NCBI RefSeq assembly: GCF_018614035.1
Contig: NZ_JAGGPA010000086.1
Span: forward strand, 1-64,000
From: Streptomyces sp. ISL-96
Lineage (GTDB): Bacteria > Actinomycetota > Actinomycetes > Streptomycetales > Streptomycetaceae
Length of the DNA: 64,000 nt
Reading direction: 5' to 3'
Each line of letters begins with the position of its first letter. The stretch's first letter is position 1. Shown here one piece after another: positions 42,974 through 53,934 of the stretch. Under the pieces are notes generated by a model that saw only the letters and a program-made list of their open reading frames with translations, made no database searches and was not told where the DNA came from. The position numbers and the translations under genes were made by a program.

Positions 42974-44206
42974 GTGAATCTCTACATCCCGGCTGCCGCG
43001 CTCGGCATCGTGCTGGTTGTCAAACTCCCCTCGTTGGTGAGGCGCTGGCGCAGCCCCGTGGTCCGCAGCGTCAACGCCGTGATCTTCCTGCAGGCCGCGG
43101 CGTTCTTCTTCTCGGCGCCCCCGACGATCACAGTCGTCAACAAGACGACCGGCGTCAGCAACTTCTCGGCGGTACTGGTCTACTGCATCCTCTCCGCCTA
43201 CGCGTGTGCCTCCCGGGTCCTCATGGAGAACTGGCGCGAGGACGTGGAGGCCCTCCCTCACACCCGCCGCCGGGTCAGGCGTTGGATCTGGGGCCACGGT
43301 GTCGTGACCGTGCTGCTCATCGGCTGTTTCGTAGGGGGCGAGGCGCCGGTCGAACGGCAGCGTGACTTCGAGACGTACTACGCCAACACACCCTTCATGC
43401 GCGAGATGGTGCTGCTCTGCCTGTTCGCCGTCACCGCCGCTGCCGCCGCGGCGGCAGCCGCGTGCTGGAAATGGGCGCGAGACATCCGCAGGGAGTTCCC
43501 CGAGCGGAGGACACCGGCTGGAGGCTTGCTGCGCATCGGGCTCACCGTCCTGGCCGTCGGCTTCCTGACCAACGTCACCTACGGTACGGCCAAGCTGGCC
43601 GCGGTCGTGGCCGCCTGGAGCGGCCGGGACTGGGAACCGCTCAACCGGGTGGCGATGTCCTTCGCCTGCCTCGGCACCCTCCTCGTCGCCGTCGGCTTCC
43701 TCATCCCCATCGTCGGACCCTGGATGACCCCACAGGTCTTCGGACCTCTGCGGACTCTGCGCTCCCTGGGTCCCCTGCGGCGAACGATCGGCGGCGTCGG
43801 CGGTCCCCGTGGCCGGATGCGGCTCTCCACTCCCTGGTACGCCGGCCCCGGCCGGCGCCTCACGGACCGGATGACCGACATCCACGACCGGATGCTGGAG
43901 CTGGGGGCGTATTACTCGGAGGACGTACGGGCGGCCGCCTACGCCCGGGCCCTGGAGGGCGGCAGGACGGAGGCCGAGAGTGTCGCCTTCGGCCTGGCCG
44001 CCATGTTCAGGGCCGCGGCGGACGCCCGCGCCCTCGCGATGCCCGCCGACAAGGAACAGGGCGTGGCGGCGGTTCGGGCGCTGCGGGCCGCCGAAGCCGA
44101 GTACCCCGACCTTCTGGTCGGCATCTCCCGAGCCCTTCCGGCCCTGGCCGTCATGCCGCACGGCGCTCCTGCCGGAGCGGCGGCTTCCCCGAGTCGGGAC
44201 CGGTAA
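42974..44206 (+). CDS. Seven-helix membrane protein (MAB_1171c-like/DUF6545 type)
   Basis: The 410-residue protein has about seven hydrophobic segments in its first 260 residues, then a cytoplasmic domain of about 150 residues (RRLTDRMTDIHDRMLELGAYYSEDVRAAAYAR, in parts). The pattern fits the family often annotated as putative transporter next to XRE/ImmA genes. Substrate and role are unknown. GTG 42974, 13 bases after the peptidase; an operon is very likely. Confidence 0.75.
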   Translation: MNLYIPAAALGIVLVVKLPSLVRRWRSPVVRSVNAVIFLQAAAFFFSAPPTITVVNKTTGVSNFSAVLVYCILSAYACASRVLMENWREDVEALPHTRRRVRRWIWGHGVVTVLLIGCFVGGEAPVERQRDFETYYANTPFMREMVLLCLFAVTAAAAAAAAACWKWARDIRREFPERRTPAGGLLRIGLTVLAVGFLTNVTYGTAKLAAVVAAWSGRDWEPLNRVAMSFACLGTLLVAVGFLIPIVGPWMTPQVFGPLRTLRSLGPLRRTIGGVGGPRGRMRLSTPWYAGPGRRLTDRMTDIHDRMLELGAYYSEDVRAAAYARALEGGRTEAESVAFGLAAMFRAAADARALAMPADKEQGVAAVRALRAAEAEYPDLLVGISRALPALAVMPHGAPAGAAASPSRDR

Positions 44207-44279: not shown

Positions 44280-47200
44280 TCAGTGCGCGGTCAGCCGGTT
44301 GACGATCGCGCTGAAGCCGTCATATGCGGCGCTCGTGAGCTCCTTGGCGACGTGGGGGATGTCCTTCGCCAGCGTGGCGATCACCCTCCCCTTCCCGAAG
44401 GTGATGAGGCTGAGCCCTGCGACGCCGAGGGAGCTGTAGAACTCCTCGCTGCCGAATCCGTAGCCCATCCCGGTGTAGAACGCGGTCGCGAAGTCGAAGA
44501 CGACGGCGGTCACACTCAGGACGAGTGCCACCGTCTCCAGAGCCATGGTGACGGGAAGACCGACTCCGGTGAAGCCGACGGCCACACCGCCGAGACCGGC
44601 CACGATGCTGCCCACGCCGGCGTAGAAGGCCACTTCATGGCTGCGGTGGGCAGCAGCCTTCCACTCCGACACGGGTACACCCCACCTGACCTCGTCGTGC
44701 TCGGAGGCGTCGGCCAGGTTCGTCCTGGCGGCCTCGGCCGCCGCCATCACTTCCGCGGCCAGCTGGGCCTCTGCCCTGTCCTGCGCCTCCCGCTTGTGCA
44801 CCGCCTCCAGGCGAGCCTCACCGGCCGCGCCGGCCGCCTCTGCCGCGTTCTTGCCCGCCAGGATCGCGGAGGCACGGGCCTGAGTCGCCCACGCCTTCGC
44901 GTTGGCCGCGGAGGTGATCGCGGTGCGAGCGGACTTGATGGCCTGGTTGGCGGAGAAGTTCGCCGAGCGGGCGGCGACGCGGGCGGCGACCGCTGCCTGC
45001 TTCGCCTGGTCGGCCGAGGCCTGCGCCTTGCGGGCGGACGCTTCGGCCTGGTCCGCGTATGCGTTCGCCCGCTCAGCGGAGGTGGCGGCTCGAGTGGCCG
45101 CCTGCTGCGCCTTCCCTGCCCACAACTCCGCTTCCTCGCCGGCCTTGCGAGCTGTGGCCGCTGCCTCCTGGGCACGGGCGGCATCCTCCTGCGCCTTGTC
45201 GGCGATCCGCGCGGCGGCGGCGATGGCACCCTGCATCGCCGCGACGTGGGTGGCGAAGTCGTGGTCCAGCTGCGCGGTCTCGTACTGGGCGGAGGCGATG
45301 AACTTCCGGCGCATCCAAGCGGGACCCTCGAGAGCCGCTTGGGCATGGGCCTTGGTGTACGGACCCGCGGTCTGGAGGAGGGCCGCGGTGGCCACCGCGT
45401 CGTCCTCCCGCTGCGCCTTCTCGAACGTGACGGCGAGGAACTGGTGCAGCGCCTCGGGCGTTCCCGCGTCCAGCGCGGCGTTGGCCGCCTCGGTGACCGC
45501 GCGGCCGGGCTGCTGGGCCAGCAGGCGCGCGACGATGACGCGGTTGTCCGCCCCCGCCGCCTGGATGGCACCGGTGCGCAGGAACGTCGCGGCAGCATCG
45601 GGATCGCTGCTGTTCAGCGCCGCGGTCGCGGCGAAGGCGACCTTCGAGGGGGAGATCCGGGCGAGGTGGACGGTGGTCTCCCGGTCGTCCTGCCGTTGTG
45701 CGATCTGCCGGTCGCTGTCGACCCAGGCGTGGACGTCCGCGTCCGTACCGGCCAGGGCGAACTGGGCAGCCTCCCGGGACCAGACGCCGTGGGAGTCCAT
45801 GACGGCGAGGGCCGCCTTGCGGCCCAAGTCGGCGGCCGCTGCCAGGTTTCCGGCCCGCAGCGCCGATTCCGCCTGCGCTACGAGGTTCTTCGTCGCCTGG
45901 GAAGTCTGCTCGGCCTGGGCTCGCTTCGCCTCGGTCTCCGCCTTCCAGCGGACCTCGGCCTGGGCGAAGAGGCGCATTTCCTCGATGGCCCGCTGTACCT
46001 CGTGGTCCAGCCGCTGCTGTTCGGCCTCGCGCGCGTCCTTCTCCACCTTGATCGCCTCGACGACCGCTGCCGTGGCCTTGTCGGCGGCCAAGGTGGCCTC
46101 ATTGGCGAACTCGGTGGACTTGTTCGCGTAGTCCACCGCCTGACCGGCGTACGTGACGGCCCAGTCGCAGGCCTCCGCGGCCTTGATCGCATGGGCGGCC
46201 GCACTGTAGGCGGCGTTCCGGGCGTTACGCGCGGCGGTCGCGGCCGCGCTCGCGAGGGCCTGCGCCGTCCCGGCGGCGTTGGTGGCGATCCGGGCGTTTG
46301 TGGTGGCGATCTGTGCCTGACGCGTGGCTTCCGCGGCCTCCGACTGGGCCACACCGGCCGAGCGCTCCGCGGACCTCTGGGCTGCCTCCGCCGTGGCGGC
46401 GGCCTGGCGTGCCGCGCCGGCGGCGTTGGCACCGATGTCGGCGCACTGCTGCGCGGCGTTGGCGGCCTGCTCGGCCTGGTCCGCTGTGGCCCGGGCCTTG
46501 GCGGCGACGTTCCGGGCGAAGACGGCGGCATCCTTGGCCTTGCCGGACAGAGCGGCGTCCTTGGAGGCGGCGATGGCCGCCCTGTACGCCGTTGACGCGG
46601 CGGTGCCCGCGGCGGCTGCCGCCTGGCTCGCGGCCATAGCGGCGTTCGCGGCGCGACGGGAAGCCTGAATGGCGGCATGGGCGGCGTTGGTGGCCATCCG
46701 CGCCGCGTCGGACGCTCCCCTCGCGGCCTCGGCCGCCTTGCGGGCCGCCTGGGCGGCCTTCACGACGTCGTTCTCCGCCAGGCGGGCCTCGGCCTCCGCC
46801 GTCTCCGCGGCTTGCTTGGCCTTGGCCGCGGCTTCCACGGCCCGGGCGGAGGCCTCTTCGGCCTGCTTCGTCTTGGATTCGGCTGTCTTGCCCTCGCGTT
46901 GGGCGACGGCGAGGAGCTCCTCGATCTTGGACCGCTCCTGGTCGCGGGCGCGGGCGATGTGCTGGCCGGTGTCGAGGAACCACTCGACATCGGCTTCCGT
47001 ACCCGACAGCGCCCTGTTGGCGTACTTCTGCACCTCCGGGCCCGCCAGCATCAAGAGCTTGGAGGCCTCGACGCGCGAGTCCTCCAACCTGGCCGTGAAC
47101 TGGTCCGTGGTGAGGAACTTCTCCAGCGCGGCCGGGGAGCCGTCGGTGAGGGCGGCGTTGCCCGCCTTGGTCACGGCCTTCCCACTGGTGGACATCACCG

Positions 47201-47648
47201 TGACGGTGGCCACTCGCAGGTCCTCCACGTGGGCGGTCTTGAAGCCGCCCGCGAGGAACGCGGCGATGGCGGAGTCCCCACCGTTGAGCGCGGCGGTCGC
47301 CTCACGACGGGTCCCCTTGCCGGCCACCGCGAGGCTGCTCAGGAGTGCGGCGCGGTTGTCCACCGCGGTCTCCGACGCGAGTTTGACGGCCAGGAAGTTC
47401 TGCACGTCGGCGTCCGACCCGGTCAGGGCGGCAGCGGCGGCGGCACGAACTGCCTTTCCGCCCAGCACCCATGCCTTGACGACCTTGGCGCGGTCGGTGT
47501 CCGGCAGCAGGAACGGGTCGTCCTGCGGAGGCGCTGTCTCGGCCCAGGCTGCCGTGGGATTGAGGACGAGGCTGGAGGTGGTGACGACGGCAGCAGTGGC
47601 CGCGATGGCGCCGAGAATGCGCCGCCTACTCCAATAAATGGTGTCCAA
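44280..47648 (-). CDS. Large exported ALF-repeat/coiled-coil protein
   Basis: The 1122-residue protein is secreted and modular. The N-terminus has a twin-arginine-like signal (SRRRILGAIAATAAVV, then AWA near residue 36). ALF-type short repeats follow at about 50-235 (repeated LTGSDADVQNFL-like units, each ending before a D-R pair), then an Ala/Glu/Lys-rich coiled-coil region to about 640. ALF repeats return at 650-800, a second coiled coil runs to about 985, and a hydrophobic C-terminal 135 residues resemble membrane-spanning helical hairpins. The start is TTG 47648 with GAAGGA six bases upstream. Such proteins often carry C-terminal toxin domains, but no known toxin is recognised here. It is divergent from the small secreted protein gene. 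Confidence 0.88.
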   Translation of the reverse strand: MDTIYWSRRRILGAIAATAAVVTTSSLVLNPTAAWAETAPPQDDPFLLPDTDRAKVVKAWVLGGKAVRAAAAAALTGSDADVQNFLAVKLASETAVDNRAALLSSLAVAGKGTRREATAALNGGDSAIAAFLAGGFKTAHVEDLRVATVTVMSTSGKAVTKAGNAALTDGSPAALEKFLTTDQFTARLEDSRVEASKLLMLAGPEVQKYANRALSGTEADVEWFLDTGQHIARARDQERSKIEELLAVAQREGKTAESKTKQAEEASARAVEAAAKAKQAAETAEAEARLAENDVVKAAQAARKAAEAARGASDAARMATNAAHAAIQASRRAANAAMAASQAAAAAGTAASTAYRAAIAASKDAALSGKAKDAAVFARNVAAKARATADQAEQAANAAQQCADIGANAAGAARQAAATAEAAQRSAERSAGVAQSEAAEATRQAQIATTNARIATNAAGTAQALASAAATAARNARNAAYSAAAHAIKAAEACDWAVTYAGQAVDYANKSTEFANEATLAADKATAAVVEAIKVEKDAREAEQQRLDHEVQRAIEEMRLFAQAEVRWKAETEAKRAQAEQTSQATKNLVAQAESALRAGNLAAAADLGRKAALAVMDSHGVWSREAAQFALAGTDADVHAWVDSDRQIAQRQDDRETTVHLARISPSKVAFAATAALNSSDPDAAATFLRTGAIQAAGADNRVIVARLLAQQPGRAVTEAANAALDAGTPEALHQFLAVTFEKAQREDDAVATAALLQTAGPYTKAHAQAALEGPAWMRRKFIASAQYETAQLDHDFATHVAAMQGAIAAAARIADKAQEDAARAQEAAATARKAGEEAELWAGKAQQAATRAATSAERANAYADQAEASARKAQASADQAKQAAVAARVAARSANFSANQAIKSARTAITSAANAKAWATQARASAILAGKNAAEAAGAAGEARLEAVHKREAQDRAEAQLAAEVMAAAEAARTNLADASEHDEVRWGVPVSEWKAAAHRSHEVAFYAGVGSIVAGLGGVAVGFTGVGLPVTMALETVALVLSVTAVVFDFATAFYTGMGYGFGSEEFYSSLGVAGLSLITFGKGRVIATLAKDIPHVAKELTSAAYDGFSAIVNRLTAH

Positions 47649-48251: not shown

Positions 48252-48776
48252 ATGAAGGCACGCAAGAATCTCGTCCGCACGGTGGCCGCGGCCACGGCCG
48301 CCGGCGCGCTGGCATGGCTGGCGATCACAGGCGCCAACGGTGCCACTGCAGGCGGGGCCGCCACGGACGCCGCCGCGATGAAGTCCATCGCCGAGGAAGG
48401 CCCGGGCTACGCCATCGAGGACTTCGGCTACCCGAACGCCGACAAGATCCTCGCCGAGCAGAACATCACCCTCAAGCGCGGTGACGGCCACATCCTCCTC
48501 GCCGACTGCGCGAGCGCGACCGACCTCCTGGAGGTCTGGTCCCGCGCGAAGGAGAAGATCTGCTTCCGGGTCACCGGGACCACCGGCTACCTGACCTTGG
48601 AGATCCCCTCGGTCTTCGCCGTCAAGGGCAACGACTACTCCGCTCAGGTCGACATGAAGGTCGGCGCGGAGGAGAAGACGTGGGACGTGAACAAGAATTC
48701 CTGGACCGCGGTGGGCGAGAGCGCCGACGAGCAGGGTCGCGAGTTCATGCTCATGGAGATCCGGACCTCCAAGTAA
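48252..48776 (+). CDS. Small secreted protein of unknown function
   Basis: The 174-residue protein has a Sec signal peptide (KARKNLVRTVAAATAAGALAWLA, cleavage near 30). The mature part has two cysteines (DCASATDLL and KICFRV) likely to form a disulfide, and the sequence CFRVTGTTGYLTLEIPSVFAV. No family is recognised. It lies 117 bases upstream of the pseudoprotease gene and opposite the ALF-repeat gene, which suggests a shared extracellular system. ATG 48252 follows a GGGGTAGG-like region. Confidence 0.75.
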   Translation: MKARKNLVRTVAAATAAGALAWLAITGANGATAGGAATDAAAMKSIAEEGPGYAIEDFGYPNADKILAEQNITLKRGDGHILLADCASATDLLEVWSRAKEKICFRVTGTTGYLTLEIPSVFAVKGNDYSAQVDMKVGAEEKTWDVNKNSWTAVGESADEQGREFMLMEIRTSK

Positions 48777-48892: not shown

Positions 48893-50536
48893 ATGCTCGC
48901 ACCCCGTCCGCGCCCGGCGCGGATCACCGGTCTGCTCTCCGCCACTGCGGTCGCCGCAGGTCTGTTCTCGGCCGCCCCCGCCCTTGCGGTAGCCGGTCCG
49001 GAGGTTCCGGCCGATCAGTACAAGTCCGTCGTAAAGCTGAACGTCGGCGACGAGGCCAACTCCCGTGCCTGCACGGCAACCCTGCTCGACGCGAACTGGA
49101 TCGTCACGGCCGCCAGCTGCTTCGCCGCCACCCCCGGTACGGCGGTCCCGGCGGGCAAGCCGGCCCTGAAGTCCATCGCCACCCTCGCCGACGGCAAGGC
49201 CGTCGAGGTCGTCGACCTCGTGCCCCGCACCGACCGCGACCTGGTCCTGGCCCGCCTGGCCACCGCCGCCACCGGCCTTCCGTGGACCAGGTTCGCTCCC
49301 GCGGCTCCCGCGGCAGGCACCGACCTCACCGCGGTCGGGTTCGGACGTACGAAGACCGAGTGGGTCCCCGACAAGCTCCACACGGGCACCTTCACCACCA
49401 ATGCGTCCGACACCGCCACCGTCAGCGTCACCGGCAAGGGCACCGACGTCCTCTGCAAGGGCGACACCGGCGGTCCGCTGCTCAACGCGGCCGGCCAGCT
49501 CGTCGGCGTCAACAGCCGTTCCTGGCAGGGCGGTTGCCTCGGCACCGCCACCGCCGAAACCCGCACCGGGGCGATCTCCGCACGGGCCGACAACCTTAGC
49601 GCGTGGTCCGCGGAGGTCCGCTCGCTGACCGCCGGCTGGAAGACCGAGGCCGTCGTCCAGGCCGGCACCTCCCTCTACCAGGGCATCCGCCTGGCAGACG
49701 GCGCCTGGACCGGCTTCACCGACGTCCAGTCCAAGGCCGGGAACATCGGCGGCGTCCGCACGGCCACCGTCGCCGGGATCAACGGCGACACCCATGTGGT
49801 GGCACTCGGCACCAACGGCCGCGTCTACCACACCATCCGCAAGGCGGACGGCACGTGGGGCACCTTCGGTGACGTCGGTGGCGAGGCCGGCGTTCTCTCC
49901 AACGTGACCCAGCTGTCCGCCGTCTCCACTGGCACCGAGATGCAGTTGGTCGCGGTCTCCAACGGCAAGGTCTTCCACACCGTGCGCCGCGCGAACGGCA
50001 CCTGGGCCCCCTTCGGTGACGTCGCCTCGGTGAGCAGCCCCATGAGCGGCGTGACCTCGATCGCCACCGCCAACACCGGCGGCGAGCTCCAGGTCATCGC
50101 CATCACCGGCGGCAAGGCCTTCCACACCCTGCGCACTACCGCCGGTCACTGGACCGTCTGGGGCGACGTCGCCCAGGCCGCGGGCGCGACCGGCCCGATC
50201 AGCTCCGTGGCCATGGCGGGCAGCGGCAGCACCGCTCACATCGTCCTCGCCACCGACAACGGCACCCGCCAGTACCACACCCTCCGTGCGAGCACCGGCG
50301 TCTGGGGCACCTTCAAGGAGCTGACCGCCCACCTCGGCGGCATCACCGTCAAGTCGGTGGGCGCGGGCGGCGTCGACCACGACGTCGAGGTCGCCTTCAC
50401 CACCAGCGACAACCGGGTGGTGCACACCACCCGCAACAACGTCGCCCGCATCTTTACGAACCCGGTGAGCGTACCCACAATCCAGGGCATCGCCGCCACC
50501 CCGCTCGGCTCCATCGCCCTCGCCGGCACGCTCTGA
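48893..50536 (+). CDS. Secreted trypsin-like pseudoprotease with beta-propeller-like repeats
   Basis: The 547-residue protein has a signal peptide (to about residue 28) and a chymotrypsin-fold domain in which the catalytic His is replaced (WIVTAASCFA instead of TAAHC) and the catalytic Ser by Thr (CKGDTGGPL instead of GDSGGP). The Asp is kept (RTDRDLVLARL). So it is very likely not a protease. Residues about 260-530 contain five or six repeats of the form VYHTIRKADGTWGTFGDV, resembling tectonin/lectin-like propeller blades. It may bind glycans. ATG 48893 follows GAAGGAAGA. A strong hairpin ends the gene. Confidence 0.88.
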   Translation: MLAPRPRPARITGLLSATAVAAGLFSAAPALAVAGPEVPADQYKSVVKLNVGDEANSRACTATLLDANWIVTAASCFAATPGTAVPAGKPALKSIATLADGKAVEVVDLVPRTDRDLVLARLATAATGLPWTRFAPAAPAAGTDLTAVGFGRTKTEWVPDKLHTGTFTTNASDTATVSVTGKGTDVLCKGDTGGPLLNAAGQLVGVNSRSWQGGCLGTATAETRTGAISARADNLSAWSAEVRSLTAGWKTEAVVQAGTSLYQGIRLADGAWTGFTDVQSKAGNIGGVRTATVAGINGDTHVVALGTNGRVYHTIRKADGTWGTFGDVGGEAGVLSNVTQLSAVSTGTEMQLVAVSNGKVFHTVRRANGTWAPFGDVASVSSPMSGVTSIATANTGGELQVIAITGGKAFHTLRTTAGHWTVWGDVAQAAGATGPISSVAMAGSGSTAHIVLATDNGTRQYHTLRASTGVWGTFKELTAHLGGITVKSVGAGGVDHDVEVAFTTSDNRVVHTTRNNVARIFTNPVSVPTIQGIAATPLGSIALAGTL

Positions 50537-50600: not shown

Positions 50601-50720
50601 CAGCCATGGCTGAACTGACCGACCGTGAACAGGCCGTCATGTGCCGGGGCCCGGGGCGGGAGTTTACTGGGTATCGAGGGCCGTCTGGGTGCCCTACTCG
50701 AAGCACCCTTGGACACGCCG

Positions 50721-53700
50721 ATGGCGATTATGCCTGCCCCCGCTGGTGGGCAGGCAGGAGGAGGTCGATGCCCTCTATGCCGCGGTCGGTGCTGGCCGTG
50801 ACGTGGTGGTCGTCGGTGTCCCGGGAGTGGGGAAAACACGGCTGACCGGTCAGTTGGGTGATCGAGCGGTGTACTTCGAACCCGCCGCTGGACCATCTGC
50901 ATGACGACCTGCTGCTGACGACACCGGGAGCAGGGGTCGTGGACGATGCTCATGCTCACCCTGATGCGGTACGTGCCCTGAGGCATGCGCGTCAGCAGAC
51001 GGGTTCGGCGTTCTCCGTGGTGACGACGACCTGGCCGGACCGGCTTGAGAAAGCGGATGGCTGCCCGAAGCGGTAGTCGTCGACGTGGGCCTCCTTGAAC
51101 GGGCGGAGATGAACGTCCTGGTGACGTCCGCAGGGGTCACCGGGCACCGTGTCCGGGCCGCGGTACTCGATCAGGCGGACGGCCGGCCGGGTTGGGCGCT
51201 GGTGTGGTGCGAGTCGCTGGCCCGCGGCAAGGCCGGGACGTCTTCAATGGCAGGGCGCATGTGGCGCACGTCGAGAGGTACCTTCGCGAGGTGACCTCCT
51301 CGCACAGGATGCTGGAAGCGCTCGCCTGCGTGGCCGCGCTGGGGGGCGCATCACCAGAGACGCTGTACGCACTCGCACCCTTGGTTGGGGTGGCTCCGGC
51401 TGAGCTGTCGGGCATGGTTGAGGGTCTTGCGCACAACGGCCTGGTGGAGTGCCGCGACGATATCTGGCACTTGCAGCCAGCCCTGCGAGCGGCGCTGGTG
51501 GCACGCTGGTTCTTCACCACACCAGTTCGACGACCGCGGGCCACGCTGGCGGCAGCCTTCCCCGACCATGCGCTGAGCCCGGCGTTGGCGGTGATGTCCG
51601 CGGCCGAGGTGTCATCTTCCCAACGGGCGCGGGACCAGGCTAAGACGTGGGTCCGATCGCTGCCAGCCGCCACGTCCTGGGACACCAACACTTTCGCCGT
51701 GGCCGCGCGGTACGCACGTCTGGACGCGTCCGCAGCCGAGTTCGCCACCAACGCGGCCTTGGTCGTCCTGGCGGCTCCCCGGGAACCGGCCCAGGCATAC
51801 GGGTAGCTGTCGACTGCATCGGTGACGCAGCGGTCCGCCAACTGATCCAGAGCGCACGTCAGTTCCTGCTGCCTGAAGCGATCGCGGGCCTGCTGGCCTT
51901 GGCCGTGAGTGACAGGCGACGCCGCAGCTCCACCCCGGATCATCCGCTGCGGGTGCTCAGCGACTTGGCCGGTGTCATCGATCCCGACTTCGGCACGTCC
52001 CTCGACATCCGTACGCGTCTGCTGCGTGCTGTGCTCGACTGGATCCGCAACTACTGCAGAGCCGAAGAACAGTGGTGCGTGGCCACCGAAGCTGTGGCCG
52101 GCATCTTCAGCGTCGAGGTGTCAGGGAACGGGCAGGACCCCGGCGCGCTGAACACGGTCACCGTCGCCCACGGCATCGATGCCGCAGGCAATCTATCCGG
52201 CCTGCTCCGCTTGTGGGAGCAAGTAGTACTGCTCTTGACCAGCGATGCGTCCGGCGGTGACAAAGTGTCCTGCCTGCCCCGCGCGCTGATCGTGCTACTG
52301 GACATGGCGCTGGGATGGGTCCGTCTCGGCCTCAGTCGCCCTCAACAGCCAGACTCCCTCGACCAAGCAGACGCAGTATGGTGCCGAGGGAGGCCGCCGC
52401 ATCCTGGACACCCTCCACCCGCTCCTGCAGCGCAGTGCAGGCACAGCGCTGCGTGCTCACCGAGCACTCGCCCACATCCGCAGCCGCGCCCGCGCGGCCG
52501 GATATGAGCTGCCCGTCTTCGACATCGAGCCCGATCTGCAGTCCTTCTGCGAGTGGGGAGGCATCGACTTCACAGACGGCTACGAAACCGCTGCTGAGCA
52601 GGTTTCCTCCCACGCCGCAGCCTTGGAACAAAGCTGGCGGACCTGGGTCCTGCCGCAGGAGTGGTCCGCTTCGATGAACTGGCTGAACAGGCACACCTGG
52701 TCGGCGACTACGCCGGTCATCTGACGGCCGTCCGCATGGGCGAACTGATGGCCGACCCGGCTGCCTGGTACCGAGAGGCGGCCGCGTCGGGATGCAGCAC
52801 GCTGCTGGGCATCGCCTTGACGCAATGGCTCACTACAGACCCCGACGCAGTGCCGCTGGCCGTGCTGTGTGCAGCCCTGGACGACGCTCGCACCCGGCCG
52901 GCTGCTATCAGTGCGGTCCTTGCGCGCGGCGTGGTGGACCGGACGGGGGAGCTGGTGATCGACTCGATGGGGGCGGAGGCCACGGCCCGTCTGGATATGC
53001 TTTTCCACCGCGAGGCGGATGACGTCATGCATCGGCTGCTCGTCCATGCCGAACCTGCCATCGCCGCGAGCGCAGCGGTCAGCTTCGACATGGGCGCACG
53101 GGCACGGACCCACCCTGCCCCCTGACTGGCAGGCTGCGTGGCGCAGCGACATTCACAGGGTGCGGCGATCACTTGGCGCAGCACAACCAGTGGAGAGCGG
53201 GCCAGGTACTTGCCTACATCGCCGAGCATGACGCCGACACCTTCGAAGGGTGGTTCTGCCAGCGGCTGCAGGACTTGATCGCCCAGGGCTGGTATGCCTC
53301 CCCTCTTCCTCATGATGGTGAGGTGCGCGCGGAGAAGATCGCTGCGGCCGCTGCCTGGTACGACACCTGGTGGGGAGACCGCTCACGCATGCACTCCGAG
53401 CTTCTTGAATACTTCACCGCCCTCGCCGACCGTGTCCCAGCGCTGCAGGCGGTGGTGGCGGCGGGCCGCTCACAGCAGCAGGAGCTGCTCCGCGAGACCG
53501 AAGAGCAGGAACGCACAGCACGCGTCCGCGGCGGTGACCACACCGCGCCGTCGGCCTGCCGGACAGTCTCATCGAAGCACTCGACCAGCACACCCGCGTC
53601 CTGCTGGCAGCCGGAATCGAGTACCGACGCGACGATCTACTGCTGACCCTTTCCCGGCTCCCTGCCCAGCCTGCTATGCCATGGGAGACTCTTGGCGCTG

Positions 53701-53726
53701 ATCGTGATGGCCGGGCAGAGAGTTGA
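50721..53726 (+). pseudogene. Heavily frameshifted STAND-type ATPase
   Basis: A continuous ATPase-like protein can be followed through about ten frame segments. They are LVGRQEEVDALYAAV with Walker A GVPGVGKTRL (about 50735-50870), a Walker-B-like GVVDDAHAH (about 50935), helical LEALACVAALGGASPETLYAL (51310-51800), repeat-like segments to 53120, and AYIAEHDADTFEGWFCQRLQDL to a stop at 53726. Frame switches fall near 50885, 51050, 51240, 51795, 52370, 52660, 53115, 53170 and 53560. Each segment is clean, with few stop codons inside. The intact gene would give about 1000 residues of the kind found in signalling or defence NTPases; here it cannot be made. The function is inferred from the P-loop only. 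Confidence 0.7.
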
Positions 53727-53797
53727 GCGTTCGGTCGCCCCGCCGTGGCAACGGCACGAGACAGATCACTGGTCACGAGAGCGTTGGGGGCTTCCCG

Positions 53798-53934
53798 GTG
53801 GCAGAACTGAAGATCCCGGACATCTACTGGGACGACGCGAAGCACGCCGCCTGCGTGAGTTCGTCGCGGAATCTCTCCGTGCTGCATTAGGTGCTCTCGG
53901 GCATCGAGTCGTCACGTGCCCCCAATGCACCTGA
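53798..53934 (+). pseudogene. Short frameshifted gene fragment
   Basis: From GTG 53798 the frame reads VAELKIPDIYWDDAKHA, and the next-frame continuation reads RRLREFVAESLRAALGALGHRVV to a stop at 53934. It seems to be a small gene with one frame shift, lying directly after the ATPase pseudogene. Family unknown. Confidence 0.4.

What the first reader, a model, noticed from the sequence alone, without database searches (positions are those of the whole stretch)
48893..50536. A secreted chymotrypsin-fold protein with both His and Ser replaced
TAASC takes the place of TAAHC and GDTGGP the place of GDSGGP, while Asp is kept. Together with five to six WxxFxDV-type repeats that look like a lectin-like propeller, this suggests a non-enzymatic surface or binding protein. 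Similar TAASC/GDTGGP proteins seem to occur in other Streptomyces, so the family may be widespread but its role is not described to my knowledge.
Basis: partly seen in the sequence, partly recalled or inferred. Interest (0 to 1): 0.65.

Follow-up and report, generated by a model that had tools for sequence, protein, structure and literature searches.

The report
Lectin subunit of an umbrella toxin
The odd "dead protease plus propeller" protein is the sugar-binding arm (UmbA) of an umbrella toxin, a published weapon that Streptomyces use against related bacteria; here it sits beside the other two parts of the particle, so it is real but already explained.

Summary
48893-50536 (+) encodes a 547-aa protein: a chymotrypsin-fold domain with Ser75 for catalytic His, Asp116 kept, Thr192 for catalytic Ser, then a predicted propeller, probably six-bladed. 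It is an UmbA, the lectin subunit of Streptomyces umbrella (Umb) toxin particles (Zhao 2024, Nature; Zhao 2025, Cell). Its neighbours are the other subunits: UmbB (48252-48776, +) and the ALF-repeat toxin UmbC (44280-47648, -). The three match the three chains of the solved Umb1 particle, PDB 8w20 (E 6.5e-49, 1e-17, 7.9e-94). In 45 and 34 homologous domains (78 distinct) the Ser site is never Ser, His is seen once, and the Arg that docks UmbB is always kept. The other 14 trypsin-family hits of the same genome keep a catalytic-Ser motif. So the dead cleft is, by inference, a socket for UmbB's N-terminal tail, and the propeller the targeting lectin. Genome searches found one UmbA and one ALF gene. 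Side result: a protein above the cut-off for the fusidic acid esterase FusH is, by sequence, an UmbA with the same lost triad. New member of a known kind.

The parts
48893..50536 (+). umbA: lectin subunit, 547 aa (inactive trypsin-like domain + beta-propeller)
   Evidence: phmmer to PDB 8w20_C E 6.5e-49 and 9oee_A E 1.8e-47; both are titled as Umb structures in the fold search
48893..48991 (+). signal peptide-like region, aa 1-33
   Evidence: hydrophobic N-terminus ending ALAVA, read from the sequence; residues 1-34 have pLDDT under 50; no signal-peptide program was run
48992..49627 (+). trypsin-like docking domain, aa 34-245
   Evidence: VIA-align to 8w20_G: Z 28.9, rmsd 1.7, 206 aligned, 47% id, model 34-245
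49115..49117 (+). Ser75 in place of catalytic His57
49238..49240 (+). Asp116, the kept member of the triad
49346..49348 (+). Arg152, equivalent of UmbA1 Arg156 that is reported to form a salt bridge to the UmbB Glu
   Evidence: aligned to FGRT of 8w20_C; 45 of 45 and 34 of 34 conserved; role from PMC11062931, passages
49466..49468 (+). Thr192 in place of catalytic Ser195
49634..50533 (+). predicted beta-propeller lectin, aa 248-547, probably six-bladed
   Evidence: AlphaFold2 strand list; 1ofz (Aleuria aurantia lectin) Z 25.4, rmsd 2.6, 264 aligned; NCBIfam CV39L lectin E 1.9e-9, below its cut-off
48252..48776 (+). umbB: adaptor subunit, 174 aa
   Evidence: phmmer to 8w20_B E 1e-17; model with low-confidence N-terminus 1-60, short helix and ten strands; Foldseek top four hits are 8w20/8w22 chains, best E 1.7e-10
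48411..48422 (+). AIED (A54-D57) of UmbB, counterpart of the AVED motif that docks in the UmbA cleft
   Evidence: aligned with AVED of 8w20_B; Glu56 in 20 of 22 rows of alignment A2
44280..47648 (-). umbC: ALF-repeat polymorphic toxin, 1122 aa, divergent from umbB-umbA
   Evidence: Pfam ALF E 5.1e-54, 8 stretches; phmmer to 8w20_A E 7.9e-94 over aa 31-960
44283..44702 (-). variable hydrophobic C-terminal region of UmbC, presumed toxin
   Evidence: identity to relatives falls here faster than in the ALF region; no Pfam or NCBIfam hit at E 0.1

Best explanation
It is UmbA, the targeting lectin of a Streptomyces umbrella toxin. Mechanism, inferred from published S. coelicolor work: the inactive trypsin-like domain does not cut. 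Its old substrate cleft, with Arg152, grips the extended N-terminus of UmbB (AIED motif, Glu56). UmbB sits on the ALF-repeat ring of UmbC, so each UmbA becomes the tip of a spoke. The propeller then binds a sugar polymer on the wall of a competitor, and the toxin at the end of the UmbC stalk acts on that cell. Shown here by sequence and model: identity of the three subunits, lost triad, kept docking residues, domain folds, gene order. Not shown here: sugar specificity, toxin activity, particle assembly, absence of protease activity in this protein.
For: The three neighbouring gene products match the three chains of PDB 8w20, the Umb1 particle (entry title). PMC11062931 (passages) says no S. 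[quoted passage not shown] Here Arg152 aligns with that Arg and is kept in 45 of 45 and 34 of 34 domains, 78 distinct. UmbB has AIED in the aligned place, Glu56 in 20 of 22 aligned rows. The UmbA model matches 8w20_G at Z 28.9; the UmbB model has ten strands as published and matches 8w20_B. Of 34 genome-contig loci, 29 carry an UmbB homolog and 25 an UmbC homolog within the fetched stretch. 12 of 45 trypsin-domain ORFs carry a relative of this lectin, fitting the published lectin diversity.
Against: No immunity gene was recognised beside umbC: the next gene (42974-44206, +) is a DUF6545/MAB_1171c-like protein on the opposite strand. The UmbC C-terminus matches no model in Pfam or NCBIfam. Sugar binding is untested, and kelch propellers score as high as lectins in the fold comparison. 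The docking Glu is Gly in L009 and Asp in L019, so that salt bridge is not universal.
Confidence: 0.95

Rival explanations
1. It is a secreted esterase of the FusH kind (fusidic acid esterase), with a hydrolase activity that does not need the classical triad.
For: NCBIfam FusH model matches aa 15-244 at E 4.9e-57. FusH is described as cleaving acetyl, thioacetyl or formyl groups from fusidic acid or its derivatives (PMC4476819, passages) and is listed in a resistance review as an extracellular esterase (PMC12493156, passages).
Against: The score is 193.7 bits against a cut-off of 999, and only the trypsin-like half aligns. A protein that passes the FusH cut-off (L043:1501-3057, 1155 bits) itself has TATSC and GDTGGP and the UmbA Arg, so the name does not point to a working triad.
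Confidence: 0.03
2. A free surface or wall-binding pseudoprotease lectin of the producer, unrelated to a toxin particle.
For: Lost triad plus lectin-like fold; signal peptide-like N-terminus.
Against: umbB lies directly upstream and umbC diverges from it, and the three match one solved complex; the UmbB-docking Arg is kept in every domain counted.
Confidence: 0.02

Closest known systems
UmbA1 of Streptomyces coelicolor (PDB 8w20 chain C)
   Same: Inactive trypsin-like domain, docking Arg in the same place, lectin C-terminus, encoded near umbB and umbC
   Different: phmmer finds a significant alignment only for the trypsin-like half; the lectin halves differ, so the sugar target probably differs (inference)
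UmbA4 of S. coelicolor (PDB 9oee), binds a teichuronic acid-like polymer
   Same: Trypsin-like domain and a beta-propeller; fold match spans model residues 36-544, Z 28.7 but rmsd 17.3, so the domains are not placed alike
   Different: UmbA4 has a bulb lectin between the two parts (PMC13274773, passages)
FusH, fusidic acid esterase (NCBIfam NF000157)
   Same: Homologous trypsin-like domain; the one member above cut-off found here also lost His and Ser
   Different: Its C-terminus is FG-GAP repeats, not this propeller; esterase activity is reported for FusH
Six-bladed fungal fucose lectins (AAL 1ofz, AofleA 7c39, FleA 6z6c) and the CV39L lectin family
   Same: Propeller fold, Z 24.3 to 25.4; CV39L by a weak sequence hit
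   Different: 11 to 16% identity in the fold matches; CV39L is, as I recall, seven-bladed; no docking domain is part of those matches

Membership tests
UmbA / umbrella toxin | Trypsin-like domain with incomplete catalytic triad | tested here: met
   Ser75, Asp116, Thr192; in 45 homologs no His and no Ser at the two sites
UmbA / umbrella toxin | Arg that salt-bridges the UmbB Glu | tested here: met
   Arg152 aligns with UmbA1 FGRT Arg156; 45 of 45
UmbA / umbrella toxin | C-terminal lectin domain, often a beta-propeller | tested here: met
   propeller fold by AlphaFold2 and fold match; sugar binding itself not testable here
UmbA / umbrella toxin | UmbB partner: extended N-terminus with AVED-like motif, short helix, ten-stranded sandwich | tested here: met
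[quoted passage not shown]
   8 ALF stretches; 7 in the six-frame search at E 1e-3, which scored 150 of 225 candidates; 8w20_A match
[quoted passage not shown]
   48252-48776 and 44280-47648
UmbA / umbrella toxin | UmbC with Tat signal and C-terminal toxin domain | tested here: inconclusive
   SRRRIL near the N-terminus read by eye; variable hydrophobic C-terminus, no family hit
UmbA / umbrella toxin | Immunity gene next to umbC | tested here: inconclusive
   none recognised; the authors did not identify one for UmbC2 either
UmbA / umbrella toxin | Assembly into a particle and killing of a competitor | not testable with these tools
   needs wet work
Active S1 (trypsin) peptidase | His-Asp-Ser triad | tested here: not met
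   the other 14 trypsin-family hits of the same genome keep a Ser motif
FusH fusidic acid esterase (NCBIfam equivalog) | Full-length score above 999 bits | tested here: not met
   193.7 bits over aa 15-244 only

The most novel reading that the evidence does not exclude
FusH, the known Streptomyces fusidic acid esterase, belongs by sequence to the UmbA family of umbrella-toxin lectins: a protein above the NCBIfam FusH cut-off has lost catalytic His and Ser, keeps the UmbB-docking Arg, ends in FG-GAP repeats, and lies in tandem with a second UmbA-like gene in a genome that has ALF genes elsewhere. Either the reported esterase activity uses another site, or FusH's native job is umbrella targeting and the resistance label is incidental.
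Probability: 0.6. Interest if true: 0.4.

Novelty: new member of a known kind. Interest (0 to 1): 0.2.

Why it matters
It turns an odd pseudoprotease into a named part of a published antibacterial weapon and shows that databases still file such proteins as peptidases or esterases (among 15 listed plasmid hits, labels are 'S1 family peptidase', 'trypsin-like serine protease' or FG-GAP protein, one record unannotated). The strain looks like a simple case: the searches found one UmbA and one ALF gene, as in the S. griseus strain with a single particle and a single UmbA (PMC13274773, section 13), so its target range should follow one lectin (inference). The FusH overlap bears on how a resistance gene name is propagated.

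Tried and rejected
Active protease: rejected, the triad is lost in the protein and in its counted relatives. FusH esterase: rejected as a name for this protein, score far below cut-off. Phage origin: no match in 50,697 phage records at E 1e-5, but one IMG/VR contig does encode Umb homologs.

Limits and dropped rows. Two ORFs of L035 (Microseira, E 1.9e-5 and 2.5e-5) fell outside the 1e-10 limit used. One counted row (L010|6621) is poorly aligned at the His and Ser sites. The 45 and 34 domains share one, so 78 are distinct. One search listed 85 matches in 46 of 150 genomes and gave 30 of them as loci; one search covers only those. Alignment A1 holds the window and 24 of the 48 UmbA rows, some cut to the trypsin-like part; A2 holds the window and 21 of the 32 UmbB rows. 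In one search the script's rule finds umbB adjacent to umbA in 27 of 34 loci; L004 and L016 fail only because stop-to-stop ORFs were used (with the starts umbB ends 57 and 186 bases before umbA). Absence of UmbB or UmbC in some loci may be due to contig ends. Domain borders of UmbC were set by hand; L002 keeps 99% identity in the C-terminus, so the drop is seen only in more distant relatives. The control is a motif scan; L083 shows TAASC, but at residue 47, away from its HtrA-like His site. Blade number: no coordinates were seen; six is inferred from the strand list, residues near 511-530 have pLDDT 55-65, and the Foldseek list also holds PHL (6fhx), which I recall as seven-bladed. The toxin family of UmbC could not be named; it resembles the published '4TM tox' name only by eye (two Kyte-Doolittle peaks above 1.4 in the C-terminus). 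The table warns that families not listed there are not excluded. The UmbA identification was first a recollection from the PDB codes and was then checked.

Full report
What is there. The frame 48893-50536 (+) encodes 547 aa. Pfam Trypsin covers aa 35-217 (E 5e-19). The catalytic His site is Ser75, the Asp is kept (Asp116), the catalytic Ser site is Thr192.

What it is. The best sequence matches among solved structures are 8w20_C (E 6.5e-49) and 9oee_A (E 1.8e-47), deposited as 'Secreted esterase' and titled 'Umb1 umbrella toxin particle' and 'S. griseus TUA bound UmbA4 complexes'. The two genes upstream fit the same particle: 48252-48776 (+) matches 8w20_B (E 1e-17) and 44280-47648 (-) matches 8w20_A (E 7.9e-94 over aa 31-960) and carries eight Pfam ALF stretches. 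These are UmbA, UmbB and UmbC.

Published mechanism. In PMC11062931 (abstract, section 10 and passages) UmbA is a trypsin-like domain plus lectin; no S. coelicolor UmbA has a complete triad; [quoted passage not shown] the UmbB N-terminus, through an Ala-Val-Glu-Asp motif, lies in the old substrate cleft with a Glu-Arg156 contact; UmbB holds UmbA on the ALF ring of UmbC. In PMC13274773 (abstract, section 13 and passages) the lectins direct species-specific binding to surface glycoconjugates, and UmbA C-terminal domains fall into 41 families.

Tests made here. In 45 homologous domains (window plus genome-contig loci) the His site is S35 T7 G1 N1 gap1, the Asp site D44 N1, the Ser site T25 A19 G1, and the docking Arg 45 of 45. 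In 34 domains from loci found with the FusH model the His site is S30 T1 H1 gap2, the Asp site D33 gap1, the Ser site T18 A15 G1, the Arg 34 of 34. One domain is in both sets. So the catalytic positions vary while the docking Arg does not. As an internal control, the Pfam Trypsin search of the same genome gave 15 hits; by motif scan the other 14 keep G[DN]SG, 13 of them with a His motif, and only this one has Thr. UmbB of the window has AIED at the motif; Glu is kept in 20 of 22 aligned UmbB rows, with Gly in L009 and Asp in L019.

Structure. AlphaFold2 on a 25-row alignment gave mean pLDDT 81.3, pTM 0.72. The trypsin-like part fits 8w20_G (Z 28.9, rmsd 1.7, 206 aligned). The C-terminal part has a two-strand unit, five three-strand units and a last strand that could close the ring, read as six blades, and fits six-bladed lectins such as 1ofz (Z 25.4, rmsd 2.6, 264 aligned); kelch propellers score the same, so the fold and not the sugar is supported. 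NCBIfam adds a weak CV39L lectin hit. UmbB modelled with a low-confidence N-terminus, a short helix and ten strands (mean pLDDT 70.8), matching 8w20/8w22 chains.

Context. Of 34 genome-contig loci, 29 have an UmbB homolog and 25 an UmbC homolog in the stretch held. UmbC of relatives keeps the first ALF set (91, 81 and 74% for L003, L004, L008) while the C-terminus drops to 64, 48 and 34%, as expected of a polymorphic toxin; the nearest relative, L002, is 99% identical there too. In the own genome one UmbA at E 0.01 and ALF repeats only in this gene (150 of 225 candidates scored) were found. A relative of this lectin was found in 4 of 61 genomes at E 1e-10, the window's own included, two of them only over part of its length.

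FusH. One of 150 genomes of the window's genus has a protein above the FusH cut-off. It has TATSC, DDRD, GDTGGP and FGRTRTEWV, FG-GAP repeats, matches 8w20_C at 1.7e-52, and lies next to another UmbA-like gene; no umbB or umbC homolog was found within the 19 kb fetched, but the genome has ALF repeats elsewhere. FusH, fusidic and esterase do not occur in the main text of PMC11062931, nor FusH or esterase in that of PMC13274773. Of the library searches, 'umbrella toxin' with 'fusidic acid' gave 0 papers; 'FusH' with 'UmbA' gave 36 by word start, of which 20 are listed and none of those titles is about either, so 16 titles were not seen. The 1997 FusH paper is not held and I have not read it; that the protein above the cut-off stands for the assayed FusH is an inference from the NCBIfam cut-off.

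Verdict. Confirmed observation, known explanation, new member of a known kind.

Noticed in passing
L043:1501-3057 (-): A protein above the NCBIfam FusH (fusidic acid esterase) cut-off has lost catalytic His and Ser and keeps the UmbA docking Arg; FusH looks like an UmbA.
   Followed up: partly
window 50691-53900 (+): A P-loop protein (GVPGVGKTR) seems spread over three frames, perhaps a decayed NTPase gene.
   Followed up: no
L073: A 100-kb IMG/VR contig encodes UmbA, UmbB and UmbC homologs, so an umb locus may ride on a mobile element or the contig is misfiled.
   Followed up: partly
plasmids collection: 51 plasmid records, 49 of them Streptomyces, carry an UmbA-type trypsin-like domain; of 15 listed, 14 are annotated as peptidases or FG-GAP proteins and one has no annotation.
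   Followed up: no
L010:4539-6617 (+): One 693-aa frame holds an UmbB-like and an UmbA-like part; UmbA-UmbB fusions are reported in PMC11062931.
   Followed up: no
L052 934-3012 (+): UmbA-like domain with His present (TAKHC) but Ala at the Ser site.
   Followed up: no
L009:2451-2969 (+): UmbB with YAVGDF: the docking Glu is replaced by Gly.
   Followed up: no
window 42974-44206 (+): DUF6545/MAB_1171c-like protein, convergent with umbC, where an immunity gene might be expected.
   Followed up: partly
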